Source of the DNA: Pseudomonas sp. FEN
GTDB taxonomy: Bacteria; Pseudomonadota; Gammaproteobacteria; Pseudomonadales; Pseudomonadaceae
Length of the DNA stretch: 64,000 nt
Direction: 5' to 3'
NCBI RefSeq assembly: GCF_904067045.1
Contig: NZ_CAJFDC010000036.1
Span: 62,001-126,000, forward strand
Part shown: positions 22,465-54,224 of the stretch, one piece after another
Layout of the letters: each line of letters opens with the position of its first letter
How positions within the stretch are numbered: position 1 is the stretch's first letter
Program-made: the position numbers and the translations under genes
Notes under the pieces: generated by a model
Seen by the model: only the letters and a program-made list of their open reading frames with translations
Told to the model about the DNA's origin: nothing
The model's database searches: none

Positions 22465-23370
22465 TCATTCGCCTCTCAGATTTGGATGTTCACGCAAGGC
22501 CGCGACCACGAAGTCGACAAAGCTGCGCACACGCACAGATGCCGTGCGGCCACCTTGATAGACCACATGGATCGGCAGTGGTGGCAACTCGAACGCCTCC
22601 AGCACGATCTCCAGCTCAGCGCTCGCCAGCTTGTCCGCCACCTGATAAGACAGCACCCGGGTCAGGCCAAAACCCAGACAAGCGGCGTGGATCGCCGCCC
22701 GATTCGCCGTCAGCGCCAATCGTGGTTCCAGGCGGATACTCAAGGGTTTGTCGCCGTCGAGGAACTGCCAGTTCCTGACCTGTGAAGCCGACGCGGCCAT
22801 GACAATCCGCGCCTGGCGCAACTCGTCCGGGTGCCGCGGCCGGCCGTGTTCATCCAGATAGCTCGGCGAAGCGCAGACCACCCGGCGGACCTGCCCTACC
22901 CTGACGGCGTGATAACCACTGTCGGGCAACTCGCCGATCCGTACCGCCACGTCGATCCCATCCTCGGCCATGGGCACCACACGGTCCAGCAGCAATGCGT
23001 TGATGGCCATCGCCGGATACTGCGCCAGGTACCGCACCATCACCGGGGTGACGTACAGCTCGCCGAACAGCACCGGCGCGGTCATGGTCAGTTGACCACT
23101 GGGACGGGCGTGACTGTCGGCGGCCGAAGCCTCGGCCTCCTCCATCGCGGCAAGGATACGTCGGCAGTCCTCCAGGTAACGCTGTCCGGGTTCAGTCAGG
23201 TGCACGTTGCGCGTGGTGCGCACCAGCAACCGCGCACCGATGCGTTGTTCCAGCGCCGCCACCGCCCGGGTGACGCTCGGTGCCGAGAGGCTCAGACGCC
23301 GCGCCGCCGCCGCGAAACCTTGCTCCTGGGCCACGGCGACGAATACCTGCATTTCCTGGAATCTATCCAT
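22465..23370 (-). CDS. LysR family transcriptional regulator
   Basis: 301 aa. The N-terminal winged helix (MQVFVAVAQEQGFAAAARRL, then LSAPSVTRAVAALEQRIG) is followed by a LysR substrate-binding domain, the standard layout and length. It belongs to the broad group next to GST or quinone-reductase genes. It lies 123 bp upstream of the GST gene on the same strand, so it probably controls the GST and oxidoreductase genes. The effector is unknown. Confidence 0.92.
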   Translation of the reverse strand: MDRFQEMQVFVAVAQEQGFAAAARRLSLSAPSVTRAVAALEQRIGARLLVRTTRNVHLTEPGQRYLEDCRRILAAMEEAEASAADSHARPSGQLTMTAPVLFGELYVTPVMVRYLAQYPAMAINALLLDRVVPMAEDGIDVAVRIGELPDSGYHAVRVGQVRRVVCASPSYLDEHGRPRHPDELRQARIVMAASASQVRNWQFLDGDKPLSIRLEPRLALTANRAAIHAACLGFGLTRVLSYQVADKLASAELEIVLEAFELPPLPIHVVYQGGRTASVRVRSFVDFVVAALREHPNLRGE

Positions 23371-27502: not shown

Positions 27503-28624
27503 CTAAAGACTCCGCAGGGTCACCAGAGCCTGTTCAATCTGAGCGAGGGTGATGTGCCGGCTCACTGAGGCACGCACGAAGTGTGTGACGCCCAGGTCCT
27601 TGAGCAGCAAAGGGCTATGCGCGGCAGTGCCCGCCCATAGGTTGAGCCCCCGCTCACGGGCCTGGCGGACAAAAGCCTGGGCCGGCACGTTGTGCGGCAC
27701 GAAAGAGGCAATCCCGGTCTGTTCGAACTGGTCACACATAAGCGTTAACCGCGGCAGACGCCGCAGCTCCTGCACCAACAGCGCATAGGGCTCCGTGCTC
27801 ACCTGCCCGCCGCCCACCTGCACGTACTCCTGCAACGCTGCGTGCAACCCCACCAGCGCCGAAAAGCTCTTTTCAGCGATCTCCAGCACCCGCGCGCCGG
27901 ACATGTCCACCCGGTTGACCTGGCCATCCGTGCTGGCGGCGTGCAAATCGGCAAAATTCAGCTGCAACTGGCCAAGCAGGCGGGGCGACACGTAGGCAAT
28001 CCCACTGCCACGGGGCCCGCAGAGAAACTTGCGGCCCGCGCCCGTCAATAGATCACAGCGGATGTCGCGCACATCCAGCGGCAACTGCCCCAACGACTGG
28101 CACGCATCCACCACATACAGCGCGTTCGAGCCTTTGAGCAGCGCACCCAGCGCTGCCACTGGATTGATCACCCCACAGCACGAGGGCAGGTGCGAAACGC
28201 TGACGAGAAACACGTCCTCGTCCAAATGCCGCTGCACCCATTCCAGGTCCAGCGGGCTGGTGGCCGTGGTCGGGATCACTTCGACGCGGATCTCACGCGA
28301 TAGCTTGAGGTAGTTGAAGAAGATCAGGTTCGCCGCGTATTCCGAGGTCGACACCCAAACCCGCTTACCTCGGGGGAATTGCAGTTTGCTGAGAATGCTG
28401 GTCCAGGCTTCGGTGGCACTGCTGAAAAAGCCAATCTGCGAAGGTTGTGCATTCAACAGCCCGGCCACCACCCGATACAGGTCGACGTTGAGCAATTCTT
28501 CGTAGGCCAGTTCGGTCTCATAGCTGCCCATTTGCGCTTCAATGGCGGTAAAACGCTGGATCGCATTCAGCGTGGCCGACGACATCAGGCCGGCACCGGC
28601 AGTGTTCAGATGCACCACATTCAT
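27503..28624 (-). CDS. Class V PLP-dependent enzyme of the biosynthetic operon
   Basis: 373 aa, the length of class V aminotransferase-fold proteins (isopenicillin-N-epimerase, cysteine desulfurase, EgtE types). Lys199 in TGAGRKFLCGPRGSG is the Schiff-base lysine, Asp173 in VVDACQS contacts the pyridine nitrogen, and His145 stacks on the ring. It could act as a lyase, epimerase or aminotransferase; the sequence does not decide. It is the last gene of the five-gene operon that begins with the desaturase; its start follows the MFS stop by 1 bp. No terminator was seen after it. Confidence 0.9.
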   Translation of the reverse strand: MNVVHLNTAGAGLMSSATLNAIQRFTAIEAQMGSYETELAYEELLNVDLYRVVAGLLNAQPSQIGFFSSATEAWTSILSKLQFPRGKRVWVSTSEYAANLIFFNYLKLSREIRVEVIPTTATSPLDLEWVQRHLDEDVFLVSVSHLPSCCGVINPVAALGALLKGSNALYVVDACQSLGQLPLDVRDIRCDLLTGAGRKFLCGPRGSGIAYVSPRLLGQLQLNFADLHAASTDGQVNRVDMSGARVLEIAEKSFSALVGLHAALQEYVQVGGGQVSTEPYALLVQELRRLPRLTLMCDQFEQTGIASFVPHNVPAQAFVRQARERGLNLWAGTAAHSPLLLKDLGVTHFVRASVSRHITLAQIEQALVTLRSL

Positions 28625-28625
28625 T

Positions 28626-29828
28626 TCACGCTTCCTTGTTCCACAAGACAGTCGACCCTTTCATTACCCCCACCGCCACCGCGAACAACAGCAATACCGT
28701 GCCCGCCAGCAGCCACGGCGAAGGCAGGGATGGCTGTGACACCAGCATGAACGCCAGCGACGGCGTGAGCATCACGCCGATATTGACCCCCGCCGAGTAA
28801 TAACCGAGGTTGCGGTCCACGGTATGACGGCTGGAGATACTGCTGACGTAGTGGGTGATGCCTGGAAACACGATCATCTCCCCCAGGCTCCAGAACACGG
28901 TGGCCACCAGCAACAATGCGCCGATATGGCTGAAGCCCATCAGGAAGAACCCCACGCCGGCCACCAGGAAACCGGCCACCAGCGACCGGCTGCTCGACAG
29001 GTGCGACATACGCTGGTTGATCGGCACTTCGAACACGATCACCAACAGTGCATTGACAAAAAAAATGATACCGACGTAGTACGCCGGCAATTCGGTGTAA
29101 TTGATGATGTAGGCCGACAGGAAAGTCGGCGGCAGCGCATAGCCAATGTGCACCGGCAATGCCGCCAGTAAAATCACCAGCAAGCGCGAGCGCTCGTGCA
29201 ATGCGCTCTCCGGCAACCCATTGCCCTTGCTGACGACGGCAGCCCCTTGGGCTACTGGCGCCGCACGCCCGAACCGCAGGCAGGCAACGAAGGCCACCAG
29301 GGACAACGCCGCGTTGATGTAGAACACCGCGTCGGCGTTACTCAGGAAAATCAGGCTGCCCAGCAATGGCCCGATCGCCATGCCGATGTTGATCGCCAGG
29401 CGGTTGCAAGAGAACGCCACTTTGCGCGACTCACTACTGCTGTGGCTGACCGTTTCGGAGAACGCCGCGGGGGTGAATGCCTCATAACAGGCGCCCCACA
29501 GAAACGACAGCACAAACAGTACCGCGGGGTTATCCACCGACGGAATGATCAGCAGCAGCAGCGCGTTGAGCAGCAACGAACCGAGGATCACCCGATTGGC
29601 GGAACACCGCTTGATCACCTCGCCGATGATCAAGTCCACGAACAACGCCCCCGCGCCATAGACGCCCACCAGCAAGCCTGCGGTGCCCGCCGATACGGCG
29701 TGCTGATGAATCAGGTACGCCGCATAGAAAGGGAACGCCATGGTGCCCATGCGGAACACCAGGGTGATCAGGAACAGCAACTGCAAGCGAGCGTTGAGCC
29801 CGCGTAACGCGCGATAAGTGCCCATCAT
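28626..29828 (-). CDS. MFS transporter of the biosynthetic operon
   Basis: 400 aa with about 12 hydrophobic segments in two halves separated by a cytoplasmic loop (about residues 185-215), the MFS layout. Its start directly follows the ATP-grasp stop (TGA-ATG-ATG), so translation is likely coupled. In such an operon it most likely exports the product, giving self-protection or signalling; import of a precursor cannot be excluded. Confidence 0.9.
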   Translation of the reverse strand: MMGTYRALRGLNARLQLLFLITLVFRMGTMAFPFYAAYLIHQHAVSAGTAGLLVGVYGAGALFVDLIIGEVIKRCSANRVILGSLLLNALLLLIIPSVDNPAVLFVLSFLWGACYEAFTPAAFSETVSHSSSESRKVAFSCNRLAINIGMAIGPLLGSLIFLSNADAVFYINAALSLVAFVACLRFGRAAPVAQGAAVVSKGNGLPESALHERSRLLVILLAALPVHIGYALPPTFLSAYIINYTELPAYYVGIIFFVNALLVIVFEVPINQRMSHLSSSRSLVAGFLVAGVGFFLMGFSHIGALLLVATVFWSLGEMIVFPGITHYVSSISSRHTVDRNLGYYSAGVNIGVMLTPSLAFMLVSQPSLPSPWLLAGTVLLLFAVAVGVMKGSTVLWNKEA

Positions 29829-31079
29829 TCAGCGGATCACATAGACGTTGTCTTTGTACTGGCGGATCTGCTCGTAATCCTGGTCGATATCGCGCTGGCT
29901 CTCCGATACCAGGAACACCCGCAGCGGACTGCTGAGCAGGTCCACGGTCCTTTTCATCAGCTTGCCAGCCTTGTATTTGACGCTCAGCTTATGCACCGAG
30001 GGCAGCCCCTCAATCAGCTGGATGGCCGCTTCATTGAACCCGGTAACCTCACCTTGCAGCGTGGTGTCGGTGTTGATGACACAGGCTTCCTTGAGCTTGT
30101 GGTAGCGTTTGCCGGCGTAGTTTGCCTTGAACGCCTCACTGTCGCAGTACACCAGGTAGGTAAGCTGCGCCTGGTTGCCGCCCAGGCTGATGTCATGGAA
30201 TTTGGGCTCCATGTTGCCGTTCAAGCGAGCACCGACTTCCACCAGAGCGGGGCCGGCTTCGGTGAGGATCACTTCCGAATGGGCCGGGCCGTTATTGATA
30301 CCCAACGCCTTGAGTACCTGCACGATGTAGTCCACCAGCACATTGGCTTCGGCACTGTCCGGGGCAATCAGCACGTCGCGGTCGTAGATGTTCTTGCCGC
30401 CGCTGATTTCGCGCTTCACGTAGCGCCAGATCCCACAGACGTAGGTCTGCCCATCACGGCTGACGGTATCGACGATGTACTCCGGGCCTTTGAGGTAGGA
30501 CTGGCAAAGAATCTCGGTATTGGCCAGGCCGAAGATATCCAGGTTAGACAGCACTTCCTCACAAGCACGCTTGACGTCCTCGACGTTATGGCAGATCGAA
30601 ACCCCGTCGGTCGAGGCCGAGCTCAGCGGCTTGATCACGCAGGGAAACACTTGGCCGGCCTCTACCCAGGCCAGCAGCTCGGCGGGGTCCGACGATTTGA
30701 TCTGGCGTGCCGTCAACAGGCCCGCGGCGGCGACTTTTTTGATCATTTCAAACTTGTCGCGGCGAGCGCGTGAGCCAGCGCTGCCGTTGGAGGTGGACAA
30801 TTGCAACTGTTCACTCAAGTAGTCGGCAAATGGCACGCCAGGCTCCTGGCCAGCAATGACGGCGACTACATTGAATTCACGCAGGCGTCGCACGATCTCT
30901 TTGGCATTGTCGTTGAATGCCAAATTGTGCTCGAACTCCGACAGGTTCGGCCCGAGCATGCTCGGCATCAACTCGGGAGTGCTCTGTACATGGATCAGGC
31001 TGAAACCGGCATCCCGGAAATATTTCGGCAGGAAATTACCGCTCGAGTAGACATCCACCAACGCGACGTACTGCTTCAT
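29829..31079 (-). CDS. ATP-grasp ligase of the biosynthetic operon
   Basis: 416 aa from ATG 31079; the longer frame to 31211 runs into the upstream gene. It has an N-terminal pre-ATP-grasp domain (about 1-105), the ATP-grasp lobe with Lys150 (PCVIKPLSSASTDG) and the magnesium-binding segment LVEVGARLNGN (Glu281, Asn289). It resembles the ligases that join amino acids into dipeptides or amides through an acyl phosphate (BacD/DdaF-like group). It starts 13 bp after the PRODH gene. The partners joined are unknown; a proline-derived acid is one candidate. Confidence 0.9.
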   Translation of the reverse strand: MKQYVALVDVYSSGNFLPKYFRDAGFSLIHVQSTPELMPSMLGPNLSEFEHNLAFNDNAKEIVRRLREFNVVAVIAGQEPGVPFADYLSEQLQLSTSNGSAGSRARRDKFEMIKKVAAAGLLTARQIKSSDPAELLAWVEAGQVFPCVIKPLSSASTDGVSICHNVEDVKRACEEVLSNLDIFGLANTEILCQSYLKGPEYIVDTVSRDGQTYVCGIWRYVKREISGGKNIYDRDVLIAPDSAEANVLVDYIVQVLKALGINNGPAHSEVILTEAGPALVEVGARLNGNMEPKFHDISLGGNQAQLTYLVYCDSEAFKANYAGKRYHKLKEACVINTDTTLQGEVTGFNEAAIQLIEGLPSVHKLSVKYKAGKLMKRTVDLLSSPLRVFLVSESQRDIDQDYEQIRQYKDNVYVIR

Positions 31080-31092
31080 AAGAATGTCCTTT

Positions 31093-32064
31093 TCAGTAAT
31101 GAGTGGCGGTTTCAGAGGCCCGTGGCGAAGCCACGTCATCCAGTGCCAGGAAAATGTTCTGCGGAAACTCAGCCACACGGTGCAGCAGATGCAAGTACCA
31201 GTTGGTGCCATACACCGCCGATACCCGGGCCTTGACCTGGCCCTGATCTTTTACCGCCTTGATCAGTTCAGGGCGCACGCCGTGGAGCATCTCCAGCTCG
31301 CCGCGGTTGGCGATGTGGCTGGTGAGGATTTCTTCAACCAGCAACGGGTCCTGGGTCGCGAAAGCAAACTGCCCACGGCCGCCATTGATCCGGTCCAGCA
31401 GCCCCAGGTAACGCTCGTTGAGCGCCTCGCCACGAGGCAAGGCAATCGCGGCAGGCTCAGCATAGACGCCTTTGACCAGGCGCACTTTGCAGCCGGTTTC
31501 CAGGACCGCCCCCAGGTCATCCGGGGTTCGGTTCAACTGCGCCTGCAGGGTGATCCCCACGTTGGGGAAGCGCCCGCTCAGTTGCAGGAAGATATCGAGG
31601 ATCGAATCCGTCCATTGGGAGCGCTCCATACTGATGATCACACCGACATTCTTGTCGGCCGCATGGGTCAGGATCTTCGAGCAGTTCTCGATCGCCAGTT
31701 CCCGGGAAATGATGGTGCCGACGTTAGACAGGTCGAACCCCAGTTGAGGTGGTTCGCCGAGCTTGGGATGCTGCACGATCAAGTCGATCAGCTTCAGGTA
31801 TTCGTCGGTTGCAGTGGTCACCTCGGCCAACGTAGTCGCTTCCTCGCCGACGAACTCGACACCGGTGCGATAGCCTTTGCCCAACAGGGCAGCCAGCTTG
31901 TCGAGCATCTCCAGGCGGTCTTCGGAAATGATGTAGCGAAGGGCTGCGGGACGCAGGAAATCACGCAGCGTCTCGCTGCCCAGGAACAAGTCACGATAGG
32001 TCTTGTTCGCCGCCAGTTTCTTCAGGGCCAGGGTAGCCAGCAAGCTGTTATCAGTAGTGTTCAT
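31093..32064 (-). CDS. Proline-dehydrogenase-like flavoenzyme of the biosynthetic operon
   Basis: 323 aa from ATG 32064, the length of monofunctional bacterial PRODH. The FAD-dependent TIM barrel is evident: GFDLSNVGTIISRELA, ISMERSQWTDSILDIFLQL, LVKGVYAEP and EMLHGVRPELIK. PRODH oxidises L-proline to pyrroline-5-carboxylate. In the final helix the usual paired arginines that hold the substrate carboxylate (WYxYxxRRLAE) are replaced: WYLHLLHRVAE, His295-Arg296. This hints at a changed substrate, such as a substituted proline. The gene follows the desaturase by 4 bp. It is separate from PutA, which is the catabolic enzyme in pseudomonads. Confidence 0.9.
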   Translation of the reverse strand: MNTTDNSLLATLALKKLAANKTYRDLFLGSETLRDFLRPAALRYIISEDRLEMLDKLAALLGKGYRTGVEFVGEEATTLAEVTTATDEYLKLIDLIVQHPKLGEPPQLGFDLSNVGTIISRELAIENCSKILTHAADKNVGVIISMERSQWTDSILDIFLQLSGRFPNVGITLQAQLNRTPDDLGAVLETGCKVRLVKGVYAEPAAIALPRGEALNERYLGLLDRINGGRGQFAFATQDPLLVEEILTSHIANRGELEMLHGVRPELIKAVKDQGQVKARVSAVYGTNWYLHLLHRVAEFPQNIFLALDDVASPRASETATHY

Positions 32065-32068
32065 GGCG

Positions 32069-33139
32069 TTAAACCCCGTAAGCCTGGTTGAGCATGCGAC
32101 GTGCGAAACTCGAATCGTCGCCTTGATTGGCAATCTTGTGGGCGCGGAACTTGGCCGCGTAACTGAGCAGGGTCTCTTTGTGACGGCTATGCCGGTCACG
32201 AGTAAAAATACCGGCCCACATGTTGTCCCAGCGCGCGTACTCAGGATGTGACATCAGCAGCTTATGTGCCTTGCGCATATTCCAATGGGGTATCGACGGG
32301 TGCAGGTGGTGCACAAGGTGATAGTTATCGTCATGGCGACCAAAAAAGAAGTTTTCCAGCGCGTTGCCTTTACGGTTACGGGTCAGCAAGAGCTTGTCGG
32401 TCTCTACGGCAGGCAGCGGATAATGCTCGGCGAGTTCGATGATCCAGCCTACGGCGACGGCGGTGGTGAATAGCGGTACCAGCCAGAACAGCACCAGTTC
32501 AGCGACCACGCCAAACCAGACGGCCACCGCCAGAATCACCGCCCAGTAGGCCCACATCACCCCGCGTTCATTGCGGATGCGAGGGGCTTGGCCCTGGACC
32601 CGGTCCTTGACCACGTACTTGATGTACTGAAGGGTCCTGTAGCCGGACAGCGCCATCACCACGTTTTTCAAGAAAAACTCACGCTCGCTCTGTTGCAAGT
32701 CGTATAGGCCACATTTGAGATGGAAATTGTAGTCAGGGTCTTTTTCCGGATGTCCCAAGTGCACATGGTGGTTCTTGATGTGCGACGTGCTGTAGGACTG
32801 ATACAGGTGGAAAACCAGGTAGCCCGAGAGAAATGTACCGGCGAACCAGTTGATCGCGCGGTTTTTCGCCAAGACCTTGTGGGTTGACTCGTGTAGCACG
32901 TTCGTCAGGGCACGCTGGGTGGTACCGATCAGAAATAGCGAAAGCGGATAGAACCAGTAGCTGACACCCAGGGACAGGTAGATGGCAAAGACGATGATTG
33001 CATAGTCCTTACCCAGTGCTATGGCCCAGTGATAGTTATCCTTCTTGCACAGATGCTTGAGCATTCCGAAGGTTTCACGGGAAATACCCGCAGCGTATTC
33101 GCCAGCAGACTCTTTGTTTTTATCGACCAGCATAATCAC
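32069..33139 (-). CDS. Membrane fatty-acid-desaturase-like di-iron enzyme of the biosynthetic operon
   Basis: 356 aa. The three His boxes of membrane desaturases/hydroxylases are present: HESTH (83-87), HIKNHHVHLGH (120-130) and HLVHHLH (274-280), with an extra His in LAEHY (239). Membrane spans lie around 48-75, 95-115 and 195-235. Such enzymes use oxygen and a di-iron centre to desaturate or hydroxylate acyl chains or other small substrates. It is the first gene of the operon, 139 bp from a lux-box-like site. In this setting, tailoring of a small acyl or amino acid unit is as likely as lipid desaturation. Start 33139 or 33133. Confidence 0.92.
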   Translation of the reverse strand: MIMLVDKNKESAGEYAAGISRETFGMLKHLCKKDNYHWAIALGKDYAIIVFAIYLSLGVSYWFYPLSLFLIGTTQRALTNVLHESTHKVLAKNRAINWFAGTFLSGYLVFHLYQSYSTSHIKNHHVHLGHPEKDPDYNFHLKCGLYDLQQSEREFFLKNVVMALSGYRTLQYIKYVVKDRVQGQAPRIRNERGVMWAYWAVILAVAVWFGVVAELVLFWLVPLFTTAVAVGWIIELAEHYPLPAVETDKLLLTRNRKGNALENFFFGRHDDNYHLVHHLHPSIPHWNMRKAHKLLMSHPEYARWDNMWAGIFTRDRHSRHKETLLSYAAKFRAHKIANQGDDSSFARRMLNQAYGV

Positions 33140-33277
33140 TCCATAATTAAGCGGTACGCTGCAACACCAGGCTCATTGCTGGGCTAAGGTTTTTTCAGGT
33201 GTTGCGGCTATTGTTTTTTTGCCTGAGCTAGACTCATTAGCTGCAAAAAAAACTAAAGCACCGCTTGATTGCGAACA

Positions 33278-33297
33278 AGCTGCCCTTTTAGACAGGT
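33278..33297 (-). promoter_or_regulatory. lux-box-like palindrome upstream of the biosynthetic operon
   Basis: On the minus strand the 20-bp site reads ACCTGTC-N6-GGCAGCT. It is close to the lux-box consensus of LuxR-type regulators (ACCTGxC-N6-GxCAGGT); five of seven half-site base pairs are symmetrical. It lies 139 bp upstream of the desaturase start, with a T-rich possible promoter between, and directly downstream of the LuxR-type gene. Confidence 0.6.
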
Positions 33298-33382
33298 AGG
33301 GCCGAATCACACGCGCACACGCACGCCAGCCGGTGAAAATTCATCGGCGGGCGTGGCATTTGCAGATGGGAGTGCCCGTTGA

Positions 33383-34108
33383 TCAGGCCTGTTCGCGGAT
33401 GTAGCCCAGTTGCAAGGCTTTGCGAATTGCGGACTTTCCGTTGGTGACATCCAACTTGCTGAAGATATTCTTCATATGGAACTTGACGGTGCGCGGGCTC
33501 ATTGAAACCAAGAGCGCTATTTCGTTATAGGTCTTGCCCAGGCTGGTCCAGGACAACACCTCCGTTTCCCGAGGCGTGAGTACAGTTTCCTGTACAACTG
33601 GTGGGCGCGAGGCTACGTCGCTTTCCAAGGCCTCGTCGTAGACCGAGACCAGCAGCATCTGCAGCTCACTTTTGTTAGCCAGCACTCTCTCGCGAAACTG
33701 CTGGTGTTCGCCGAAGCTGCACAGGTTGAGGATGGAATAAAACCCCCGATTGCCATGCACGATAAAACTGGCCCCCTCGCCGACGGGGGCACAGGGACCC
33801 GGCACCGGGACCGCTTCTGCCGCGGGCGCGAGGATGTTTTCATCGCTCCAGAAAAACGGTTTTATGCGGCGCTTGGACAAAGACAGCAATTGACCGCGTT
33901 GGTAGAAGTCATCCGCAGAGTCACCGCGGTCCAGCGCATCGGGATAATTGGTGATGATTTCCGCTTCATCCAGCGTCGGTCCACACTGATAGACCTCGAA
34001 ATGCCCAAGGCCACGTCTGCTCAGCTCGGCATCGAGCAATTGGTGCACGTCGGCGGGCTGCATGGGCGCGTTGTTATTGGTTGGACTATCGCTTCGCATG
34101 AATATCAT
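33383..34108 (-). CDS. LuxR-type solo transcriptional regulator
   Basis: 241 aa; starts at 34099 or 34063 are possible. The C-terminal HTH is a classic quorum-sensing LuxR type (LTPRETEVLSW, then GKTYNEIALLVSMSPRTVKF). The N-terminal domain has the autoinducer-domain outline (TNYPDALDRGD, then KPFFW), but the residues that hold acyl-homoserine lactone in TraR (Trp57, Tyr61, Asp70, Pro71) appear replaced, while Trp85 is kept in PFFW. No luxI is in the window. It is a solo, perhaps sensing the operon's own product or another signal. It is on the same strand as the operon, 243 bp upstream of the desaturase. Confidence 0.9.
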   Translation of the reverse strand: MIFMRSDSPTNNNAPMQPADVHQLLDAELSRRGLGHFEVYQCGPTLDEAEIITNYPDALDRGDSADDFYQRGQLLSLSKRRIKPFFWSDENILAPAAEAVPVPGPCAPVGEGASFIVHGNRGFYSILNLCSFGEHQQFRERVLANKSELQMLLVSVYDEALESDVASRPPVVQETVLTPRETEVLSWTSLGKTYNEIALLVSMSPRTVKFHMKNIFSKLDVTNGKSAIRKALQLGYIREQA

Positions 34109-34977: not shown

Positions 34978-36276
34978 ATGTCGCGTGAAATGGCCATCAG
35001 TGCCGAAAACCTGAGCAAGTGTTATCAAATTTATGATGCCCCCAAGGACCGTCTGCTGCAGATGTTGGCACGCGGCAGGAAACGTTTTTATCGCGAGTTT
35101 TGGGCCCTCGACGATGTCTCCCTGACGGTCGAAAAGGGAGAGACCGTCGGTATTATCGGTCGCAATGGCAGTGGTAAATCTACGCTGTTGCAACTCATCT
35201 GCGGGACGTTGATGCCAACCCATGGTCATGTACGAGGGGATGGCCGTATTGCTGCGTTGCTTGAGCTGGGGTCTGGTTTCAATCCAGAGTTCACCGGTCG
35301 AGAAAACGTCTATATGAATGCAGCTGTGCTGGGTTTAAGTAGCTCAGAGATCGATGCTCGCTTTGATGAAATCATAGCTTTCGCCAACATCGGCGACTTT
35401 ATCGACCAGCCCACCAAAATCTACTCCAGTGGGATGCTGGTGCGTTTGGCCTTCGCCGTTTCGGTCTGTGTGGAACCCGACATCCTGATCGTCGATGAGG
35501 CCCTCTCTGTCGGCGATGCATCCTTCCAGTTCAAATGCCTGAACCGGTTGGAAGAGCTGACTGCTAAAGGCACGACGCTGTTGTTCGTCTCCCATGACAT
35601 GACCATGGTCAAACGTTTTTGCAATCGGGTCATATACCTGCGCCAAGGCCGGGTCGTTGCCAGCGGCGCACCCGATGAAATAGCCGAGTTGTACTTGCTC
35701 GACATGCGCGACGAGCAACGGCAATGGGCCAGTGGCGGCGTCATACCGGTCACGCGCAAATCATTTATGGGTGAGCAGGATGGCGTTGCGTTTGGCACCC
35801 ACGAGGGCCACATCAGCTCTGCCTGTTTCACCAACACCCAGCAGTTGTCCTCGAGCTACCTGTATGGCGACGATATCGAGATTCACGTTGAGGTGCTGCT
35901 CAAAGAATCAATCAGTCGACCCAACATCAGCTTCACCATTCAGGAGGCAAGGCTGCTGGTGATTGGTGGCGCAAATTTTGCGCTGCAGGCAGGCCCAGCC
36001 GAAGATGGCTGGCGACGTGCAGCGATCACCGTGTGCTTCCCGGCCAACCTCAGCGCAGGTCGCTATCACATCACCCTCAAGCTTCTGGACGGGGAAAATG
36101 AGCACACCTCACAATTGATTGAGAAACAGGTGGCGCCGTTAGCGTTTGACATGTTGCCGAACCAGAAAAACTTTCTGGGCATGGTTGATCTGGGTCTGCA
36201 AACTGTCAGCCCTGCGTCGAATAAAAGGCTATTCCAGGCCGATCGGCCATCCGATTGTGCAACTCACGGGGAGTAA
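34978..36276 (+). CDS. wzt: Polysaccharide ABC exporter ATPase (Wzt-like)
   Basis: 432 aa. The N-terminal ABC ATPase has Walker A (GRNGSGKST, 61-69), a signature reduced to YSSGM (149-153), as usual in Wzt/TagH proteins, Walker B (DILIVDEAL) and the switch His206. After about residue 250 comes a beta-rich C-terminal domain like the Wzt carbohydrate-binding domain that recognises the modified chain end. With a Wzm-type permease it exports lipid-linked O-polysaccharide to the periplasm. The only permease here is at 44232-45050, on the other strand and 8 kb away. First gene of a plus-strand unit with the next two. Confidence 0.92.
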   Translation: MSREMAISAENLSKCYQIYDAPKDRLLQMLARGRKRFYREFWALDDVSLTVEKGETVGIIGRNGSGKSTLLQLICGTLMPTHGHVRGDGRIAALLELGSGFNPEFTGRENVYMNAAVLGLSSSEIDARFDEIIAFANIGDFIDQPTKIYSSGMLVRLAFAVSVCVEPDILIVDEALSVGDASFQFKCLNRLEELTAKGTTLLFVSHDMTMVKRFCNRVIYLRQGRVVASGAPDEIAELYLLDMRDEQRQWASGGVIPVTRKSFMGEQDGVAFGTHEGHISSACFTNTQQLSSSYLYGDDIEIHVEVLLKESISRPNISFTIQEARLLVIGGANFALQAGPAEDGWRRAAITVCFPANLSAGRYHITLKLLDGENEHTSQLIEKQVAPLAFDMLPNQKNFLGMVDLGLQTVSPASNKRLFQADRPSDCATHGE

Positions 36277-36279
36277 GGT

Positions 36280-37647
36280 TTGACAGAAGTCATAAAACAA
36301 CCCGCGTTGCACGTCGCTATATTCGGCACATTTGACGTAGAGAATTACGGCGACCTGCTGTTTCCGGTCATCGCCGAGGCGGAGCTGACGCGGCGGCTGG
36401 GCACCGTTAACCTGCATCGTTTTTCCTACAACGCAAAAAGCCCTCCCGAGTGGCCCTATACCGTTACATCGCTAACAGAACTACCGACGTTGGCCGAACA
36501 ACTCGACGGCGCCCTGATAGGTGGCGGTTTTATCGTTCGCTTCGACAAAGTCGTCGCCCACGGCTACCTTCCCCCGACACCGTATATCCATCACCCCACG
36601 GGGTACTGGCTATCGCCGGCGCTGATTGCTCAGCAACATGGCATACCGGTGATCTGGAACGCGCCAGGCATGCATTGCAATGATATTCCCGAGTGGAGCG
36701 CCCCTCTGCTCAAGATGGTGTTGGAGAACAGCCAATGCGTTCGGGTCAGGGATGAGCTATCACGCGATAGCCTAAGAGAACTCAGTCCAACCACTGATAT
36801 TCAAGCGTTACCCGATACCGCTTTCGGCCTGCCAAACCTGATCGATGAGCACCATCCGAGCAAGGCGTTTACCGAACTACGCAAGACGTTCGGGTTGGAT
36901 AGGCCGTATATCGTCATTCAGCCGATTCACGTGGTCGAGCCGTTTTTGCAGCTTTTTGAAAAACATCCGCAAGCCCTATCCGGCTGCCGCTTGGTGGTCC
37001 TTCCGATCGGCCCGGTTCTGGGCGACCATCACATGGTAGTGTCCACCCGTATACCCAATACCCTTACTCTGCCTTTCTGGCCGGACCCGTTACTGTTGGC
37101 GGAAATCCTCTGCCACGCTCAGGCGGTCATCGGTCATAGCTATCACCTGTCCATCAGTGCCCTGGTATTTGGCGTTCCGGTGTTTTCCACGGCTGACCTG
37201 AGCATCGGCAAGTATACGGCGCTGGCCAAAATGGGTCAGATGCACGCTCTTGTTCAAGCGCAAGAACTGACGGAGCAATGGTTCACTTCACGACTGGGCA
37301 AAACAGAACCGTCTGCGGCGATAGAGGCCACAAAGGTGGAGCTGGCCACATATTGGGACCAGGTTGTGGACATCATCGTTCAAGGCAAGACTTCGGCTCA
37401 CCACGCCCTCAATCGCTTCTGGCAGCATCTGCCTGCCTTGCTTGAAAACGAAGGCCATGCGCCCTTGTTACCCACAGAGCAGTCAGTACCCACGGTCGAC
37501 TATCTGAACATCGAGCTCAACGCCAGACAGCGACAGATCTTCATGCTGACCGAACAGATTGCAAGGTTGCGAAACTCCAACAGCTTCAAAGTCACGGCAC
37601 CTTTACGTGCGCTGAGGCGCGCTTTCAGAAAATTGAGGGGAAAATAA
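36280..37647 (+). CDS. Polysaccharide pyruvyl transferase family protein
   Basis: 455 aa from a TTG start at 36280, 3 bp after the Wzt-like stop, with GGGGA 8 bp upstream. The N-terminus (HVAIFGTFDVENYGDLLFPV) is that of the polysaccharide pyruvyl transferase family, which adds ketal-linked pyruvate or carries out related transfers on sugars. A C-terminal coiled-coil-like tail (about 410-455, RQRQIFMLTEQIARLRNSNS) resembles tails on other O-antigen enzymes in pseudomonads. The next gene begins immediately after the stop, so the unit continues. The acceptor sugar is unknown. Confidence 0.85.
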   Translation: MTEVIKQPALHVAIFGTFDVENYGDLLFPVIAEAELTRRLGTVNLHRFSYNAKSPPEWPYTVTSLTELPTLAEQLDGALIGGGFIVRFDKVVAHGYLPPTPYIHHPTGYWLSPALIAQQHGIPVIWNAPGMHCNDIPEWSAPLLKMVLENSQCVRVRDELSRDSLRELSPTTDIQALPDTAFGLPNLIDEHHPSKAFTELRKTFGLDRPYIVIQPIHVVEPFLQLFEKHPQALSGCRLVVLPIGPVLGDHHMVVSTRIPNTLTLPFWPDPLLLAEILCHAQAVIGHSYHLSISALVFGVPVFSTADLSIGKYTALAKMGQMHALVQAQELTEQWFTSRLGKTEPSAAIEATKVELATYWDQVVDIIVQGKTSAHHALNRFWQHLPALLENEGHAPLLPTEQSVPTVDYLNIELNARQRQIFMLTEQIARLRNSNSFKVTAPLRALRRAFRKLRGK

Positions 37648-38343
37648 ATGCAGCCCATCCTGAACCTGTCAGCACTCAAGCATGGTGTACTCAAAATCGA
37701 TCCATTCTCATGGGCCGAAATAAGCAACCTGTATTCCGCGCAAGACGCTGCCGCCCTCGCCGCTAGCTATCCCCACGATCACTTCAAGACCGTGACGGGT
37801 TATGGCGGGGAAAAAAATTATGACTACGAGGCCCGCGCCTTGTTACCTATGGGTAGCAACGCCATTGCCCACGAGGCTGAACTGAGCGATGTCTGGCGTC
37901 GACTTGCCCGGGACCTGTGCAGCGAGGCTTATCGCGATGCCCTCAGCGCCCTGACCGACCGTGACCTACGTCATGCTCCAATGGAGGTGAACGTTTTTCA
38001 CTATGGGCCTGGGGCTAGCCTGGGACCACATCCAGACCTCCCAGACAAACGGATCACCCATATTCTCTATTTCAATGAGTCTTGGGATCGATCCCATGGC
38101 GGTTGCCTGAATATCCTCCGCAGCAAGGACCCAACTGCCGTGGCCGCAGTGGTCGAACCTCTAGTTGGAAACTCTGCCATACTGGTACGTTCCGATAACT
38201 CCTGGCATGCCGTTTCTCCAGTCGTCCCGAACCAAAGGGGCTCACGCCGGAGTGTGACAGTGACCTTCTACCAGCCAGGCTCCGAAAGCTCTATGTGGCC
38301 CCTGGGCGATACCACGCCTCTGCAAAGTTACCCACGAAACTGA
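37648..38343 (+). CDS. 2-oxoglutarate/Fe(II)-dependent oxygenase family protein
   Basis: 231 aa, starting directly after the preceding stop. The iron-binding facial triad is visible as His-x-Asp in LGPHPDLPDK and a distal His in SDNSWHAVSPV, with the 2OG-binding Arg in RRSVTVTFY. It resembles prolyl-4-hydroxylase-type oxygenases found in polysaccharide loci. Likely substrate is the growing or finished glycan, its lipid carrier or a surface protein; this is inference from position. Confidence 0.82.
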   Translation: MQPILNLSALKHGVLKIDPFSWAEISNLYSAQDAAALAASYPHDHFKTVTGYGGEKNYDYEARALLPMGSNAIAHEAELSDVWRRLARDLCSEAYRDALSALTDRDLRHAPMEVNVFHYGPGASLGPHPDLPDKRITHILYFNESWDRSHGGCLNILRSKDPTAVAAVVEPLVGNSAILVRSDNSWHAVSPVVPNQRGSRRSVTVTFYQPGSESSMWPLGDTTPLQSYPRN

Positions 38344-47222: not shown

Positions 47223-49058
<1,836 letters not shown>

Positions 49059-49061
49059 GCT

Positions 49062-49844
49062 CTATTTCTCCTGGCTGGCAACCGCGCAAACGACAGTGAT
49101 GCCGCGGGCCTGAATCTGTTCGCGAACCTCTTGAGGTAAGCGATCATCGGTAATAAGGGTATGGATACTGCTCCAGGGCAGCTCCAGGTTGGGAATCTTG
49201 CGGCCGATCTTGTCGGACTCGACCATGACCACCACTTCGCGGGCGACCTCCGCCATCACCCGACTCAGCCCCAGCAATTCGTGGAAGGTGGTGGTGCCAC
49301 GCTCCAGATCGATGCCATCGGCACCGATGAACAACTGGTCGAAGTCGTAGGAACGCAACACGCGCTCGGCGACCTGGCCCTGGAAAGACTCGGAATGCGG
49401 GTCCCAGGTACCACCAGTCATCAGCAGCACCGGTTCGTGTTCCAGCTCGCTCAGGGCGCGGGCGACATGCAGGGAGTTGGTCATCACCACCAGGCCGGGT
49501 TGCTGGCCCAGTTGCGGGATCATCGCGGCGGTGGTGCTGCCACTGTCGATGATGATACGCGCGTGCTCGCGGATACGTCCGACGGCGGTACGGGCAATGG
49601 CCTGCTTGTAGCGGGAAACCGCCTGGGCAGGATCGCTGAACAGCTCGTGGGGAATGGTGATCGCACCGCCATAGCGGCGCATCAACAGGCCGTGGCTTTC
49701 CAGGGCCGCGAGATCCTTGCGAATCGTCACCTCGGAGGTTTCGAAGCGCCTGGCCAATTCATCCACACTGACTTCACCCTGGTCATTGAGCATGGCCAGG
49801 ATATTGTGCCGACGTTGAGGGGTGTTGCGTTTCGATATAGTCAC
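49062..49844 (-). CDS. glmR: DeoR-family regulator of amino-sugar synthesis
   Basis: 260 aa. The N-terminal winged helix is typical of DeoR/GlpR (RRHNILAMLNDQGEVSVDEL then FETSEVTIRKDLAALE), and the C-terminal domain is the DeoR sugar-phosphate sensor (IIDSGSTTAAM; SHGL). In P. aeruginosa the gene at this position is called glmR and affects glmS expression and cell-wall antibiotic tolerance. It lies between glmU and glmS on the same strand, 3 bp from the glmS start, so it may control its own operon according to glucosamine-6-phosphate supply. Confidence 0.9.
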   Translation of the reverse strand: MTISKRNTPQRRHNILAMLNDQGEVSVDELARRFETSEVTIRKDLAALESHGLLMRRYGGAITIPHELFSDPAQAVSRYKQAIARTAVGRIREHARIIIDSGSTTAAMIPQLGQQPGLVVMTNSLHVARALSELEHEPVLLMTGGTWDPHSESFQGQVAERVLRSYDFDQLFIGADGIDLERGTTTFHELLGLSRVMAEVAREVVVMVESDKIGRKIPNLELPWSSIHTLITDDRLPQEVREQIQARGITVVCAVASQEK

Positions 49845-49957
49845 TTAAGTTTCGATTCGAAAGATAACGGCGCCAATAAGACCTTCGAACCGAAACTTAG
49901 TCAAGTGAAATGATCGCAGCTGTGGATAAATCAGCGTGCAACGTCACTGTGGATAAC

Positions 49958-51325
49958 TCAGGGCTTGCCGAGCTTCACCGGGCGCTTCCAGCCATCGATA
50001 TTGCGCTGGCGGGCACGGGCCACGCCCAACTGCGACTCACCGAGGTTCTGGGTGATGGTCGAACCCGCCGCCGTGCTGGCTCCAGAAGAGATATCCACAG
50101 GTGCCACCAGCGAATTGTTGGAACCGATGAACACGTCCTCGCCCAACACCGTCCTGTGCTTGTTGGCCCCGTCATAGTTGCAGGTGATGGTACCGGCGCC
50201 GATATTGGTCCGCGCACCGACTTCGGCATCGCCGAGGTAGGTCAGGTGCCCGCACTTGGCGTCTTCGCCCAGGTGCGTATTCTTCAGTTCGACAAAGTTA
50301 CCCACATGGGCACGGGCGTCGAGCACGCTGCCCGGGCGCAGGCGGGCGAACGGACCGGCATCGCTGCCCTCGCCCATGACCGCACCGTCGAGATGGCTGT
50401 TGGCCTTGATCGTCACGCCCTTGCGCAGGGTGCTGTTCCTGATCACGCAGTTCGGGCCGATGACCACGTTGTCCTCGATCACCACCTGACCTTCGAGAAT
50501 CACGTTGATGTCGATCAGCACATCGCGGCCGACGATGACCTCACCGCGCACATCGAAACGCGCCGGGTCGCGCAGCGTCACCCCTTGTGCCATCAGTCGC
50601 CGAGCCGCACGCAACTGGTAATGACGTTCCAGCTCCGCCAACTGCAAGCGGTCGTTGGCGCCCTGTACCTCCATCGCGTCCTGCGGTTGCTCGGTGGCGA
50701 CCGCCAGGCCGTCACCCACGGCCATGGCGATGACATCGGTCAGGTAGTACTCGCCCTGGGCATTGTTGTTCGACAAGCGGCTCATCCACTCACCCAGGCG
50801 CTTGGCCGGTACCGCGAGAATTCCGGTATTGCCTTCGGTAATGGCACGCTCGGCCGCGCTGGCGTCCTTCTGTTCGACGATGGCGCAGACCTTGCCCGCG
50901 GCATCGCGCACAATCCGGCCGTAGCCAGTGGGGTCAGCCAGCTCGACCGTCAACAGCCCGAGTTGCTCGGGGCCCGCCTGCTTCAGCAGGCGCCGCAAGG
51001 TCTCGACTTCGATCAAGGGCACGTCGCCGTAGAGGATCAGCACAGTGTCGGCACTAATGAACGGCACTGCCTGAGCCACGGCATGACCGGTGCCGAGCTG
51101 CTGGTCCTGCAGGACAAAATTCAGGTCATCGGCGGCCAGGCGCTCACGCACCAGGTCGGCACCGTGGCCGATCACGACATGGATGCGCTGTGGATCAAGT
51201 TGTCGAGCGCTGTGGATAACATGTCCCAGCATCGAATTGCCCGCAACCGGGTGCAGCACTTTAGGCAACGATGAACGCATGCGAGTGCCCTGACCCGCGG
51301 CGAGGATAACGATTTCGAGAGACAT
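49958..51325 (-). CDS. glmU: Bifunctional UDP-GlcNAc pyrophosphorylase / GlcN-1-P acetyltransferase
   Basis: 455 aa. The N-terminal pyrophosphorylase has the nucleotide motif [11 protein letters not shown], and the C-terminal half is a left-handed beta-helix acetyltransferase ([20 protein letters not shown]). The enzyme acetylates glucosamine-1-phosphate and joins it to UMP, giving UDP-GlcNAc. It lies between the ATP synthase operon terminator and glmR. The start [13 protein letters not shown] is conserved in the family. Confidence 0.98.
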
Positions 51326-51390
51326 GACTGGCTACCAATCCTGGTGTGGTCAGCGACTGTGACCAAGTAATAAATGCGGAAAAGAAAAAA

Positions 51391-51413
51391 GGGTAGCCGA
51401 GGCTACCCTTTTT
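51391..51413 (-). terminator. Rho-independent terminator of the atp operon
   Basis: GGGTAGCC-GA-GGCTACCC is an 8-bp perfect stem with a tiny loop, flanked by an A-run (51379-51390) and a T-run (51409-51413), so it can work in both directions. It lies 26 bp after atpC and ends that operon. Confidence 0.9.
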
Positions 51414-51438
51414 AATCAATCACACAACAAGCCTCGGC

Positions 51439-51864
51439 TTAACCGCCGAACTTCTTGCGGATCTGCTGAACGGTGCGCAGCTGAGCTGCAGCCTCGGCCA
51501 GACGTGCGGCAGCGGAGCCATAGTCGAAGTCCGCGCCTCTTTCGTGCAGCGCCTTCTCAGCGGCCTTGACGGCTTCCTGAGCGGAGGCTTCATCCAGGTC
51601 GGCAGCACGTTGCACGGTGTCGGCAAGCACCTTGACCATGTTCGGCTGAACCTCGAGGAAACCACCGGAGATGTAGAACACCTCGGCTTCCCCGCCCTGC
51701 TTGATCAAGCGGATAGGACCCGGCTTGAGATGGGTGATCAGCGGCGCGTGCCCCAGGGCGATCCCCAGATCACCCAGTGCACCGTGCGCAATCACCATCT
51801 CGACCAGCCCGGAGAAGATCTCCCCTTCTGCACTGACGATATCGCAATGGACTGTCATAGCCAT
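51439..51864 (-). CDS. atpC: F1F0 ATP synthase epsilon subunit
   Basis: 141 aa. The N-terminal beta-sandwich ([20 protein letters not shown]) and the two-helix C-terminal domain are standard. It links gamma rotation with F1 and inhibits ATP hydrolysis. Last gene of the atp operon; the ORF end is followed by the terminator. Confidence 0.97.
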
Positions 51865-51909
51865 CTGATTGCCTCAACCTAAATTAGCGCCCGTTGCCGG
51901 GCGCCGGGA

Positions 51910-53313
<1,404 letters not shown>

Positions 53314-54174
53314 TTAAACCGCGGCAGCGCCGCCGACGATTTCCGAGATCTCTTGGGTGATCGCAGCCTGACGCGCCTTGTTGTAGATCAGCTGCAAATC
53401 GCTGATCAAATCACCGGCGTTGTCGGTAGCGTTCTTCATCGCGATCATCCGCGCAGCTTGTTCGGCCGCGTTGTTCTCGACCACCGCCTGGTACACCTGC
53501 GACTCCACGTAGCGCACCATCAAGCCGTCAAGCAGCTCTTTGGCGTCCGGTTCGTAGAGATAGTCCCAGTGGTGCTTGAGTTCTTGATCCGGGGTCGCAA
53601 CCAATGGAATCAACTGCTCTACGGTGGGCTGTTGAGTCATGGTGTTGATGAACTTGTTGGACACCACGGACAGGCGGTCAATACGGCCGTCCAGGTAGGC
53701 ATCCAGCATCACCTTGACGCTGCCGATCAGATCGTTGATCGACGGCTCTTCACCCAGGTGGCTGATAGCTGCAACGACGTTACCGCCGAAGTTGCGGAAA
53801 AACGCCGCACCTTTGCTACCGACTACACACAGGTCAATCTCGACGCCGTTTTCGCGGTTTACCGCCATGTCCTTGACCAGGGCCTTGAACAGGTTGGTGT
53901 TCAAGCCACCGCACAGACCACGGTCACTGCTCACCACGACATAGCCGACGCGCTTGACGGCGTGATCGATCATGAACGGGTGGCGGTATTCCGGGTTGGC
54001 GTTGGCCAGATGCCCAATTACCTGGCGGATACGTTCCGCATAAGGACGGCTCGCAGCCATGCGCATTTGTGCCTTGCGCATTTTGCTGACCGCCACTTTT
54101 TCCATGGCGCTGGTAATCTTTTGCGTGCTTTTGATGCTCGCAATCTTACTGCGAATCTCTTTTGCGCCTGCCAT
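53314..54174 (-). CDS. atpG: F1F0 ATP synthase gamma subunit
   Basis: 286 aa. The N-terminal helix ([20 protein letters not shown]) and C-terminal helix ([20 protein letters not shown]) form the rotor coiled coil that turns inside F1. It lies between atpA and atpD in the usual order. Confidence 0.98.
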
Positions 54175-54224
54175 GTAACACCTATCAGGTTAGCAAGCGG
54201 GAGCCTTGCGGCTCCCGCTGCGGC

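What the first reader, a model, noticed from the sequence alone, without database searches (positions are those of the whole stretch)
27503..34108. Candidate undescribed biosynthetic operon: desaturase, PRODH-like, ATP-grasp, exporter, PLP enzyme, LuxR solo
Five genes on one strand with gaps of 0-13 bp encode enzyme types rarely placed together: a membrane di-iron desaturase, a proline-dehydrogenase-like flavoenzyme, a peptide-bond-type ATP-grasp ligase, an MFS exporter and a class V PLP enzyme. A LuxR-type regulator lies directly upstream on the same strand. I infer that an oxidised proline or related amino acid is joined to another unit, trimmed or desaturated, and exported. No NRPS or PKS is needed, so standard cluster finders could miss it. 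I cannot match it to a known product from memory.
Basis: partly seen in the sequence, partly recalled or inferred. Interest (0 to 1): 0.8.

Follow-up and report, generated by a model that had tools for sequence, protein, structure and literature searches.

The report
Cross-phylum amino-acid operon with altered PRODH
A tightly packed Pseudomonas operon appears to make and export a small peptide-like compound built on an unusual amino acid; three of its genes recur together in distant bacteria, and one of them looks like proline dehydrogenase but has lost key residues for using proline.

Summary
Five minus-strand genes (desaturase, PRODH-like, ATP-grasp, MFS, class V PLP) follow a LuxR gene, with 0-13 bp gaps. 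All six occur in order in 7 of 7 type-1 Pseudomonas loci, under purifying selection, in three different flank settings. A type-2 version (10 of 398 Pseudomonas genomes) adds a threonine aldolase-type gene and lacks this LuxR. Desaturase-PRODH-PLP recurs in a Streptomyces and on Rhodobacterales plasmids; Actinophytocola has desaturase-PRODH before its contig ends. The desaturase belongs with enzymes acting on free amino acids (GntB, rhizobitoxine desaturases). The PLP enzyme is SufS-like without the catalytic cysteine. The LuxR has lost AHL-contact residues; an invariant lux-box-like site, found once in the genome, precedes the operon. Best reading: an NRPS-free pathway making an unusual amino acid, joined as a dipeptide and exported, probably an antimetabolite, possibly a signal. 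Substrate and product are unknown. Paper searches aimed at the gene set found no description; known-cluster databases were not available.

The parts
33383..34108 (-). LuxR-type regulator, AHL-contact residues lost
   Evidence: Pfam GerE and Autoind_bind; conserved at 83-96% in 6 of 6 other type-1 loci; differs at the W/Y/D/P positions kept in three LuxRs next to LuxI genes
33274..33298 (-). 25-bp block invariant in 7 of 7 type-1 loci; core ACCTGTCTAAAAGGGCAGCT (33278-33297) is an imperfect inverted repeat like a lux box (likeness recalled)
   Evidence: alignment of the LuxR-desaturase gap; core found once in the own genome at up to 2 mismatches, control pattern 0
32069..33133 (-). membrane di-iron desaturase/hydroxylase of the GntB/RtxC kind
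   Evidence: PF00487; NF041365 GntB 331.2 bits, cut-off 380; nine His invariant in 16 of 16 sequences aligned
31093..32064 (-). PRODH-like flavoenzyme with D111, S145 and H292-x-x-H295-R296 signature
   Evidence: PF01619; residue table; model matches PRODH 2g37 with Z 34.4, rmsd 3.7 over 291 residues
29829..31079 (-). ATP-grasp enzyme related to L-amino-acid ligases and dapdiamide synthase DdaF
   Evidence: NF005543 373.7 bits (cut-off 302), NF041595 243.8 (cut-off 840); PDB L-amino acid ligase 30vh_A E 3.2e-50
28626..29828 (-). MFS transporter, taken to be an exporter
   Evidence: PF07690
27503..28624 (-). class V PLP enzyme, SufS/EgtE-like, without the desulfurase cysteine
   Evidence: PF00266; PLP lysine K199 and R351 invariant in 9 of 9 aligned; alignment to SufS; model to 5b7u Z 33.1, rmsd 3.4 over 345 residues, mean pLDDT only 72

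Best explanation
The operon makes an unusual amino acid, joins it to another amino acid and exports the product. (1) A LuxR protein that no longer has an AHL-type pocket binds the conserved box upstream of the desaturase gene and switches the operon on. (2) The membrane di-iron enzyme hydroxylates or desaturates the side chain (beta/gamma carbon) of a free L-amino acid, arginine or a homoserine-type amino acid being the best guesses. (3) The PRODH-like flavoenzyme oxidises a C-N bond of the resulting intermediate, which is not proline; Asp replaces the catalytic lysine. (4) The class V PLP enzyme binds the alpha-amino acid as an aldimine and carries out an elimination, cyclisation or epimerisation, not desulfuration. 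(5) The ATP-grasp enzyme forms a dipeptide. (6) The MFS protein exports it. Shown: gene families, conservation, residue changes, the shared upstream box, recurrence of the trio in other phyla and classes. Inferred: every reaction and substrate, the dipeptide, the export direction, the regulation. The likely role is an antimetabolite delivered as a dipeptide; a signal role is less likely but open.
For: All six genes in order in 7 of 7 type-1 loci. In 10 of 398 Pseudomonas genomes a second version, PRODH, threonine aldolase-type, ATP-grasp, MFS, PLP, desaturase, in one order on one strand in 10 of 10. Trio in a row with ATP-grasp genes, peptidase, MFS and RidA in Streptomyces NBC_01006; trio with AzlC/AzlD genes and no annotated ATP-grasp gene in the stretch on two Rhodobacterales plasmids, which fits a free amino acid as the trio's product; desaturase-PRODH with two ATP-grasp genes and MFS in Actinophytocola, contig end just after. 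Desaturase relatives lie in putative rhizobitoxine operons (PMC5789663 passages), and GntB, by its NCBIfam name an arginine gamma-hydroxylase, feeds the enduracididine cyclase GntC (PMC10367076 passages). PRODH signature in 20 of 20 desaturase-linked rows, 0 of 10 other non-canonical, 0 of 3 canonical. Purifying selection on all six genes. Invariant, genome-unique upstream box.
Against: No product, substrate or mutant is known. The type-2 desaturase falls in a different subclade from the type-1 one and passes the GntB cut-off where the window's does not, so the set may not make the same amino acid everywhere. The type-2 ATP-grasp is distant (28-32% identity). None of the six genes was recognised as a resistance gene, which a toxin might need. 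The altered lysine is shared by PRODH-like genes without a desaturase, so it is not by itself a mark of this pathway. PLP model confidence is low (pLDDT 72).
Confidence: 0.6

Rival explanations
1. Arginine-based pathway of the guanitoxin/enduracididine kind: the desaturase makes gamma-hydroxyarginine, the PLP enzyme cyclises it, and the PRODH-like enzyme oxidises the cyclic guanidine, for example towards a 2-aminoimidazole amino acid. Asp in place of Lys would suit a cationic substrate.
For: 10 of 10 type-2 desaturases exceed NCBI's GntB cut-off of 380 (419.8-454.3 bits); type 2 carries a threonine aldolase-type enzyme in 10 of 10, and guanitoxin is recalled to use a PLP aldolase; K to D in 20 of 20.
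Against: The window desaturase scores below the GntB cut-off (331.2 vs 380) and sits in another subclade. No cyclase of the GntC kind was recognised in the block; its only PLP enzyme is SufS-like. The cut-off is also passed by a Peribacillus gene followed only by a transporter gene, so passing it does not prove an arginine pathway.
Confidence: 0.25
2. Vinylglycine-type pathway like rhizobitoxine: the desaturase introduces a beta,gamma double bond in a free amino acid to give a suicide inhibitor of PLP enzymes, capped as a dipeptide.
For: Desaturase 35-41% identical to those of putative rhizobitoxine operons, in the same family.
Against: The block has no sulfhydrylase-type PLP gene or glutamine-amidotransferase-type gene as in those operons; a PRODH-like enzyme has no role in rhizobitoxine as recalled; Rtx-like desaturases form a separate clade.
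Confidence: 0.2
3. The operon makes a signal rather than a toxin, sensed by its own LuxR (a private signalling circuit).
For: LuxR is in 7 of 7 type-1 blocks, the box is unique in the genome, and the LuxR lacks AHL contacts.
Against: No hit to this LuxR in 10 of 10 type-2 loci; ATP-grasp, peptidase and epimerase-type partners in actinobacteria suit peptide antimetabolites.
Confidence: 0.2
4. One reading: proline is oxidised and coupled.
For: Overall PRODH fold (Z 34.4 to 2g37, rmsd 3.7 over 291 residues); second arginine (R296) and Tyr285 kept.
Against: Catalytic Lys to Asp, Arg555 to His, Tyr552 to His in 20 of 20 desaturase-linked rows.
Confidence: 0.06

Closest known systems
Rhizobitoxine (rtx) operons
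   Same: Desaturase of the same family, beside a PLP gene annotated AEP transaminase and a LysE-type exporter gene
   Different: No PRODH-like or ATP-grasp gene annotated in the stretches read; other PLP enzymes; separate desaturase clade
Guanitoxin (gnt) pathway
   Same: GntB is a homologous transmembrane enzyme (PMC10367076, passages); PLP chemistry follows
   Different: No PRODH-like enzyme (recalled); GntC-type cyclase and later genes not seen here; window protein below the GntB cut-off
Dapdiamide synthase DdaF and related L-amino-acid ligases
   Same: ATP-grasp family; DdaF and its kin join amino acids without NRPS (recalled)
   Different: Window enzyme far below the DdaF cut-off (243.8 vs 840); other partner genes
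Mangotoxin (mbo) of Pseudomonas
   Same: Cluster pairing an ATP-grasp ligase with an oxidase that modifies an amino-acid side chain (PMC13185094, passages)
   Different: Uses a heme-oxygenase-like di-iron oxidase (MboA); the term proline dehydrogenase has 0 occurrences in that paper

Membership tests
Proline dehydrogenase (functional PRODH) | PRODH barrel fold | tested here: met
   PF01619 51.6 bits, cut-off 27; model Z 34.4, rmsd 3.7, 291 residues to 2g37
Proline dehydrogenase (functional PRODH) | Catalytic Lys (PutA Lys329) and Arg555/Arg556 pair with Tyr552 | tested here: not met
   D111, H292, H295-R296 in 20 of 20 desaturase-linked rows; 3 of 3 canonical rows keep K and YxxRR
Cysteine desulfurase (SufS/NifS) | PLP lysine and carboxylate arginine (roles recalled) | tested here: met
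   K199 and R351 invariant in 9 of 9, aligned with SufS
Cysteine desulfurase (SufS/NifS) | Catalytic cysteine in the C-terminal loop | tested here: not met
   SufS loop SGQHCAHP aligns with AGTAAHSP; no Cys in that loop in 9 of 9
GntB arginine gamma-hydroxylase (NF041365) | Score over NCBI cut-off 380 | tested here: not met
   331.2 bits; 10 of 10 type-2 desaturases do pass
GntB/RtxC-like membrane di-iron family | Conserved histidine boxes | tested here: met
   H81, H85, H118, H122, H123, H237, H272, H275, H276 invariant in 16 of 16
Rhizobitoxine operon | Rtx-type PLP genes next to the desaturase | tested here: not met
   Window genes against L056-L058
Dapdiamide A synthase DdaF (NF041595) | Score over cut-off 840 | tested here: not met
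   243.8 bits
PRK07206 ATP-grasp subfamily (NF005543) | Score over cut-off 302 | tested here: met
   373.7 bits
ATP-grasp L-amino-acid ligase | Forms a dipeptide from two amino acids | not testable with these tools
   needs an enzyme assay
AHL receptor (LuxR/LasR) | AHL-contact residues of the sensor domain (positions recalled) | tested here: not met
   Four positions kept in three LuxRs beside LuxI (L045, L073, L074) are changed; L044's neighbour did not align there and L046 gave no LuxR hit
AHL receptor (LuxR/LasR) | lux-box-like operator | tested here: inconclusive
   invariant imperfect inverted repeat; binding not shown

The most novel reading that the evidence does not exclude
Desaturase, non-proline PRODH and cysteine-less SufS-like PLP enzyme form a portable module, shared by Pseudomonas, Rhodobacterales and actinobacteria, for an undescribed type of oxidised amino acid, for example a cyclic guanidine or vinylglycine warhead. 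It is released free where paired with AzlC/AzlD genes and as a dipeptide where paired with ATP-grasp ligases. The PRODH-like enzymes would be a new catalytic branch of that family, working with Asp instead of Lys.
Probability: 0.45. Interest if true: 0.78.

Novelty: new variant of a known kind. Interest (0 to 1): 0.62.

Why it matters
ATP-grasp pathways without NRPS or PKS are easily missed by cluster finders, and compounds of neighbouring kinds (rhizobitoxine, dapdiamides, mangotoxin) are enzyme inhibitors (recalled). A recurring three-enzyme set gives a genomic hook for finding such compounds across phyla. The PRODH-like branch offers a defined enzymological question: what does a PRODH barrel oxidise once its catalytic lysine and one carboxylate arginine are replaced in every desaturase-linked member examined?

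Tried and rejected
Fatty-acid desaturation: set aside because the best NCBIfam match is an amino-acid hydroxylase and relatives lie in rhizobitoxine-like operons. Cysteine desulfurase or DNA-phosphorothioation protein: PADLOC matched SspA/DndA over residues 52-215 of the PLP protein, but the desulfurase Cys is absent; the other 3 of 4 proteins scanned matched nothing in PADLOC. Furanomycin came to mind for type 2 because some type-2 genomes have SBW25-like sizes (my guess, not tested); only the search listing was seen, so it is neither supported nor excluded. Enediyne link: three Streptomyces plasmid loci with enediyne-type neighbours (my reading of the annotation) carry PRODH-like genes, but none with HxxHR and none with a desaturase in the annotated stretch. 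A wider census found few members: the own genome alone of 398 in the phylum at 1e-40; 7 of 396 in the actinobacterial phylum at 1e-60, of which only Actinophytocola has the desaturase in the stretch fetched; 1 of 397 in its order at 1e-85. The rows shown scored at most five candidates per genome in those searches, so these are lower bounds. Comparison of the window's flanks with four relatives gave no clear empty site: the left flank hit mostly a repeated chemoreceptor segment, and the right flank gave three short matches in 2 of 4 genomes. In one search my script read only one file and gave no synteny result; one search repeated it. Of the 48 plasmid records matched with the PRODH-like query, seven neighbourhoods were read.
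Full report
Anatomy. On the minus strand the window carries a LuxR gene (34108-33383), a 249-bp gap, then five packed genes: desaturase (33133-32069), PRODH-like (32064-31093), ATP-grasp (31079-29829), MFS (29828-28626) and class V PLP (28624-27503) with gaps of 4, 13, 0 and 1 bp (starts chosen by me). Pfam and NCBIfam support the family assignments.

Conservation and boundaries. Searching 398 Pseudomonas genomes with the PRODH-like protein gave 15 matches at 1e-20: five at 89-100% identity, own genome included (type 1), and ten at 46-48% (type 2). With the loci from named genomes, seven distinct type-1 loci are in hand counting the window; 7 of 7 have the six genes in order. Five of the seven (L004-L007, L027) share flanking genes with each other, while the window and P. 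baetica (L003) have others in the few kilobases compared; in the window and L003 the shared block begins at LuxR and ends at the PLP gene. That is what a transferred unit looks like. All six genes are under purifying selection: median dN/dS 0.094, 0.072, 0.059, 0.086, 0.072 and 0.090 for PLP, MFS, ATP-grasp, PRODH-like, desaturase and LuxR over 21 pairs each, largest single value 0.237 in LuxR.

Type 2. In 10 of 10 loci the order on one strand is PRODH-like, threonine aldolase-type, ATP-grasp, MFS, class V PLP, desaturase; in L032 the desaturase lies about 2.9 kb from the PLP gene (families of the aldolase-type and ATP-grasp genes from L028). Identities to the window: PRODH 45-48%, PLP 39-44%, desaturase 36-40%, ATP-grasp 28-32%. 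No hit to the window LuxR at 1e-6 in 10 of 10. A LysR-like gene lies within the fetched stretch in nine of ten (similar to window 22465-23370, which I read as LysR by eye), but in L028 it is 2.8 kb away beside other genes, so the type-2 regulator is not known.

Other phyla and classes. Streptomyces NBC_01006 has desaturase-PRODH-PLP in a row, with two ATP-grasp genes in the same run (one fused to a racemase-like domain), a third ATP-grasp gene at the edge of the stretch, a prolyl-oligopeptidase-type peptidase, MFS, an NRPS module, P450 and RidA. Pseudosulfitobacter and Roseovarius plasmids have the trio near AzlC/AzlD genes and no annotated ATP-grasp gene in the stretch; their PRODH proteins are identical, so they are one observation, and in Roseovarius an IS3 element sits before a shortened desaturase gene. 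Actinophytocola has desaturase-PRODH with two ATP-grasp genes, an epimerase-type gene and MFS; its contig ends after the PRODH gene, so the PLP gene could not be looked for there. Of seven plasmid neighbourhoods read, three have the trio. Of seven actinobacterial genomes with a strong PRODH-like match, only Actinophytocola shows the desaturase in the stretch fetched.

The PRODH-like enzyme. Fold and profile say PRODH: Z 34.4, rmsd 3.7 over 291 residues with Thermus PRODH 2g37, Z 34.3, rmsd 1.7 over 268 with Deinococcus 4h6r; mean pLDDT 86. A published calculation names Lys329 as the base, Arg555 and Arg556 as carboxylate ligands and Tyr552 as a neighbour of proline (PMC10651016, passages). In my alignment Tyr552-x-x-Arg555-Arg556 falls on H292-x-x-H295-R296; Lys329 falls on D111 and the Asp of the D-x-E motif (Asp370) on S145, these two column assignments resting on motifs and recalled numbering. 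20 of 20 desaturase-linked rows have D, S and HxxHR. Ten further non-canonical rows (three enediyne-neighbour genes, G1138, Metabacillus, G1056, G1122, G1165, G851, G1012) have D or E and S or G but 0 of 10 have HxxHR; 3 of 3 canonical rows keep K, D and YxxRR. So the altered base is a feature of a wider branch, and HxxHR marks the desaturase-linked members seen. Proline is an unlikely substrate; a replaced base and a lost arginine suggest a substrate with different charge.

The desaturase. Its best NCBIfam match is GntB, arginine gamma-hydroxylase, at 331.2 bits against a cut-off of 380. 10 of 10 type-2 desaturases pass (419.8-454.3), as does a Peribacillus one (398.9); four others from trio or Rtx-like contexts score 286.8-311.9. 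Desaturases in putative rhizobitoxine operons belong to the same family (the Paraburkholderia phymatum operon is called putative rhizobitoxine in PMC5789663, passages). A FastTree tree of 25 sequences puts type 1, Streptomyces, Actinophytocola and Pseudosulfitobacter in one clade, type 2 with the Peribacillus, Salmonella and Eleftheria proteins (support 0.94), and Rtx-like proteins apart; no authentic GntB was in the tree. Both named branches act on free amino acids, so this one probably does too.

The PLP enzyme. Its structural matches are SufS-type desulfurases (the 50 rows shown have Z 31.9-33.1, rmsd 3.1-4.1; model pLDDT 72), and its best profile is EgtE (113.6 bits, cut-off 400). The PLP lysine and an arginine aligned with the SufS one are invariant in nine aligned members, but the catalytic cysteine is missing in 9 of 9.

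Regulation. The gap between LuxR and desaturase holds a 25-bp block identical in 7 of 7 loci amid variable sequence. Its 20-bp core, ACCTGTCTAAAAGGGCAGCT, is an imperfect inverted repeat of lux-box type (likeness recalled) and occurs once in the 6.79-Mb genome at up to two mismatches, with no control match. The LuxR has L, D, G and Q where three LuxI-linked LuxRs have W, Y, D and P (that these are AHL contacts is recalled). LuxI genes exist elsewhere in three of five type-1 genomes tested (three in the own genome, one each in G262 and G359, none found in G105 and G349), so sensing of the cell's own AHL is unlikely to explain the conserved circuit.

Known or new. Ten paper searches were made. 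Of those aimed at the gene set, searches returned zero papers; one search returned four, of which I read passages of one (PMC13185094) and saw the listing of the other three; none describes this set as far as seen. Known-cluster databases were not available. The kind of system, an NRPS-free route to a peptide with an unusual amino acid, is known; this gene set and the PRODH branch are the new part.

Noticed in passing
L039 11887-12867, L040 11896-12861, L042 11890-12864: PRODH-like genes of the altered branch (Asp or Glu for Lys) sit in Streptomyces plasmid clusters, two of which (L040, L042) have enediyne-type gene names such as SgcJ/EcaC or KedN5, without an annotated desaturase; S. globisporus C-1027 also has a related open frame.
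   Followed up: partly
L069 6971-8849: A GntB-family desaturase followed by a DMT transporter gene on a Salmonella Muenchen plasmid, amid phage-like genes (antiterminator Q, KilA-N, antirepressor); a similar two-gene pair occurs on a Peribacillus plasmid (L060).
   Followed up: no
L033 63-8775 and window 47223-55769: The type-2 cluster of genome G173 lies next to genes syntenic with window 47.2-55.8 kb, while the window has type 1 about 13 kb away; this may be an insertion hot spot.
   Followed up: no
L068, L070, L071: Rhizobium plasmids carry two arrangements of Rtx-like desaturase operons, one with LysE (L071) and one with a DMT transporter (L068, L070; a histidine-decarboxylase gene is annotated in L068), possibly different products.
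   Followed up: no
L065 9222-11721: An Asp-branch PRODH-like gene near a threonine aldolase-type gene (39% to the type-2 one) in an actinobacterial genome (G851), without a desaturase or class V PLP hit in the stretch.
   Followed up: no
window 34978-38343: Beyond LuxR, on the other strand, a Wzt-like ABC ATPase, a pyruvyl-transferase-like gene and an oxygenase-like gene suggest a cell-surface polysaccharide locus; GC 0.54-0.55 in the first two; families are my reading of the translations, not scanned.
   Followed up: no
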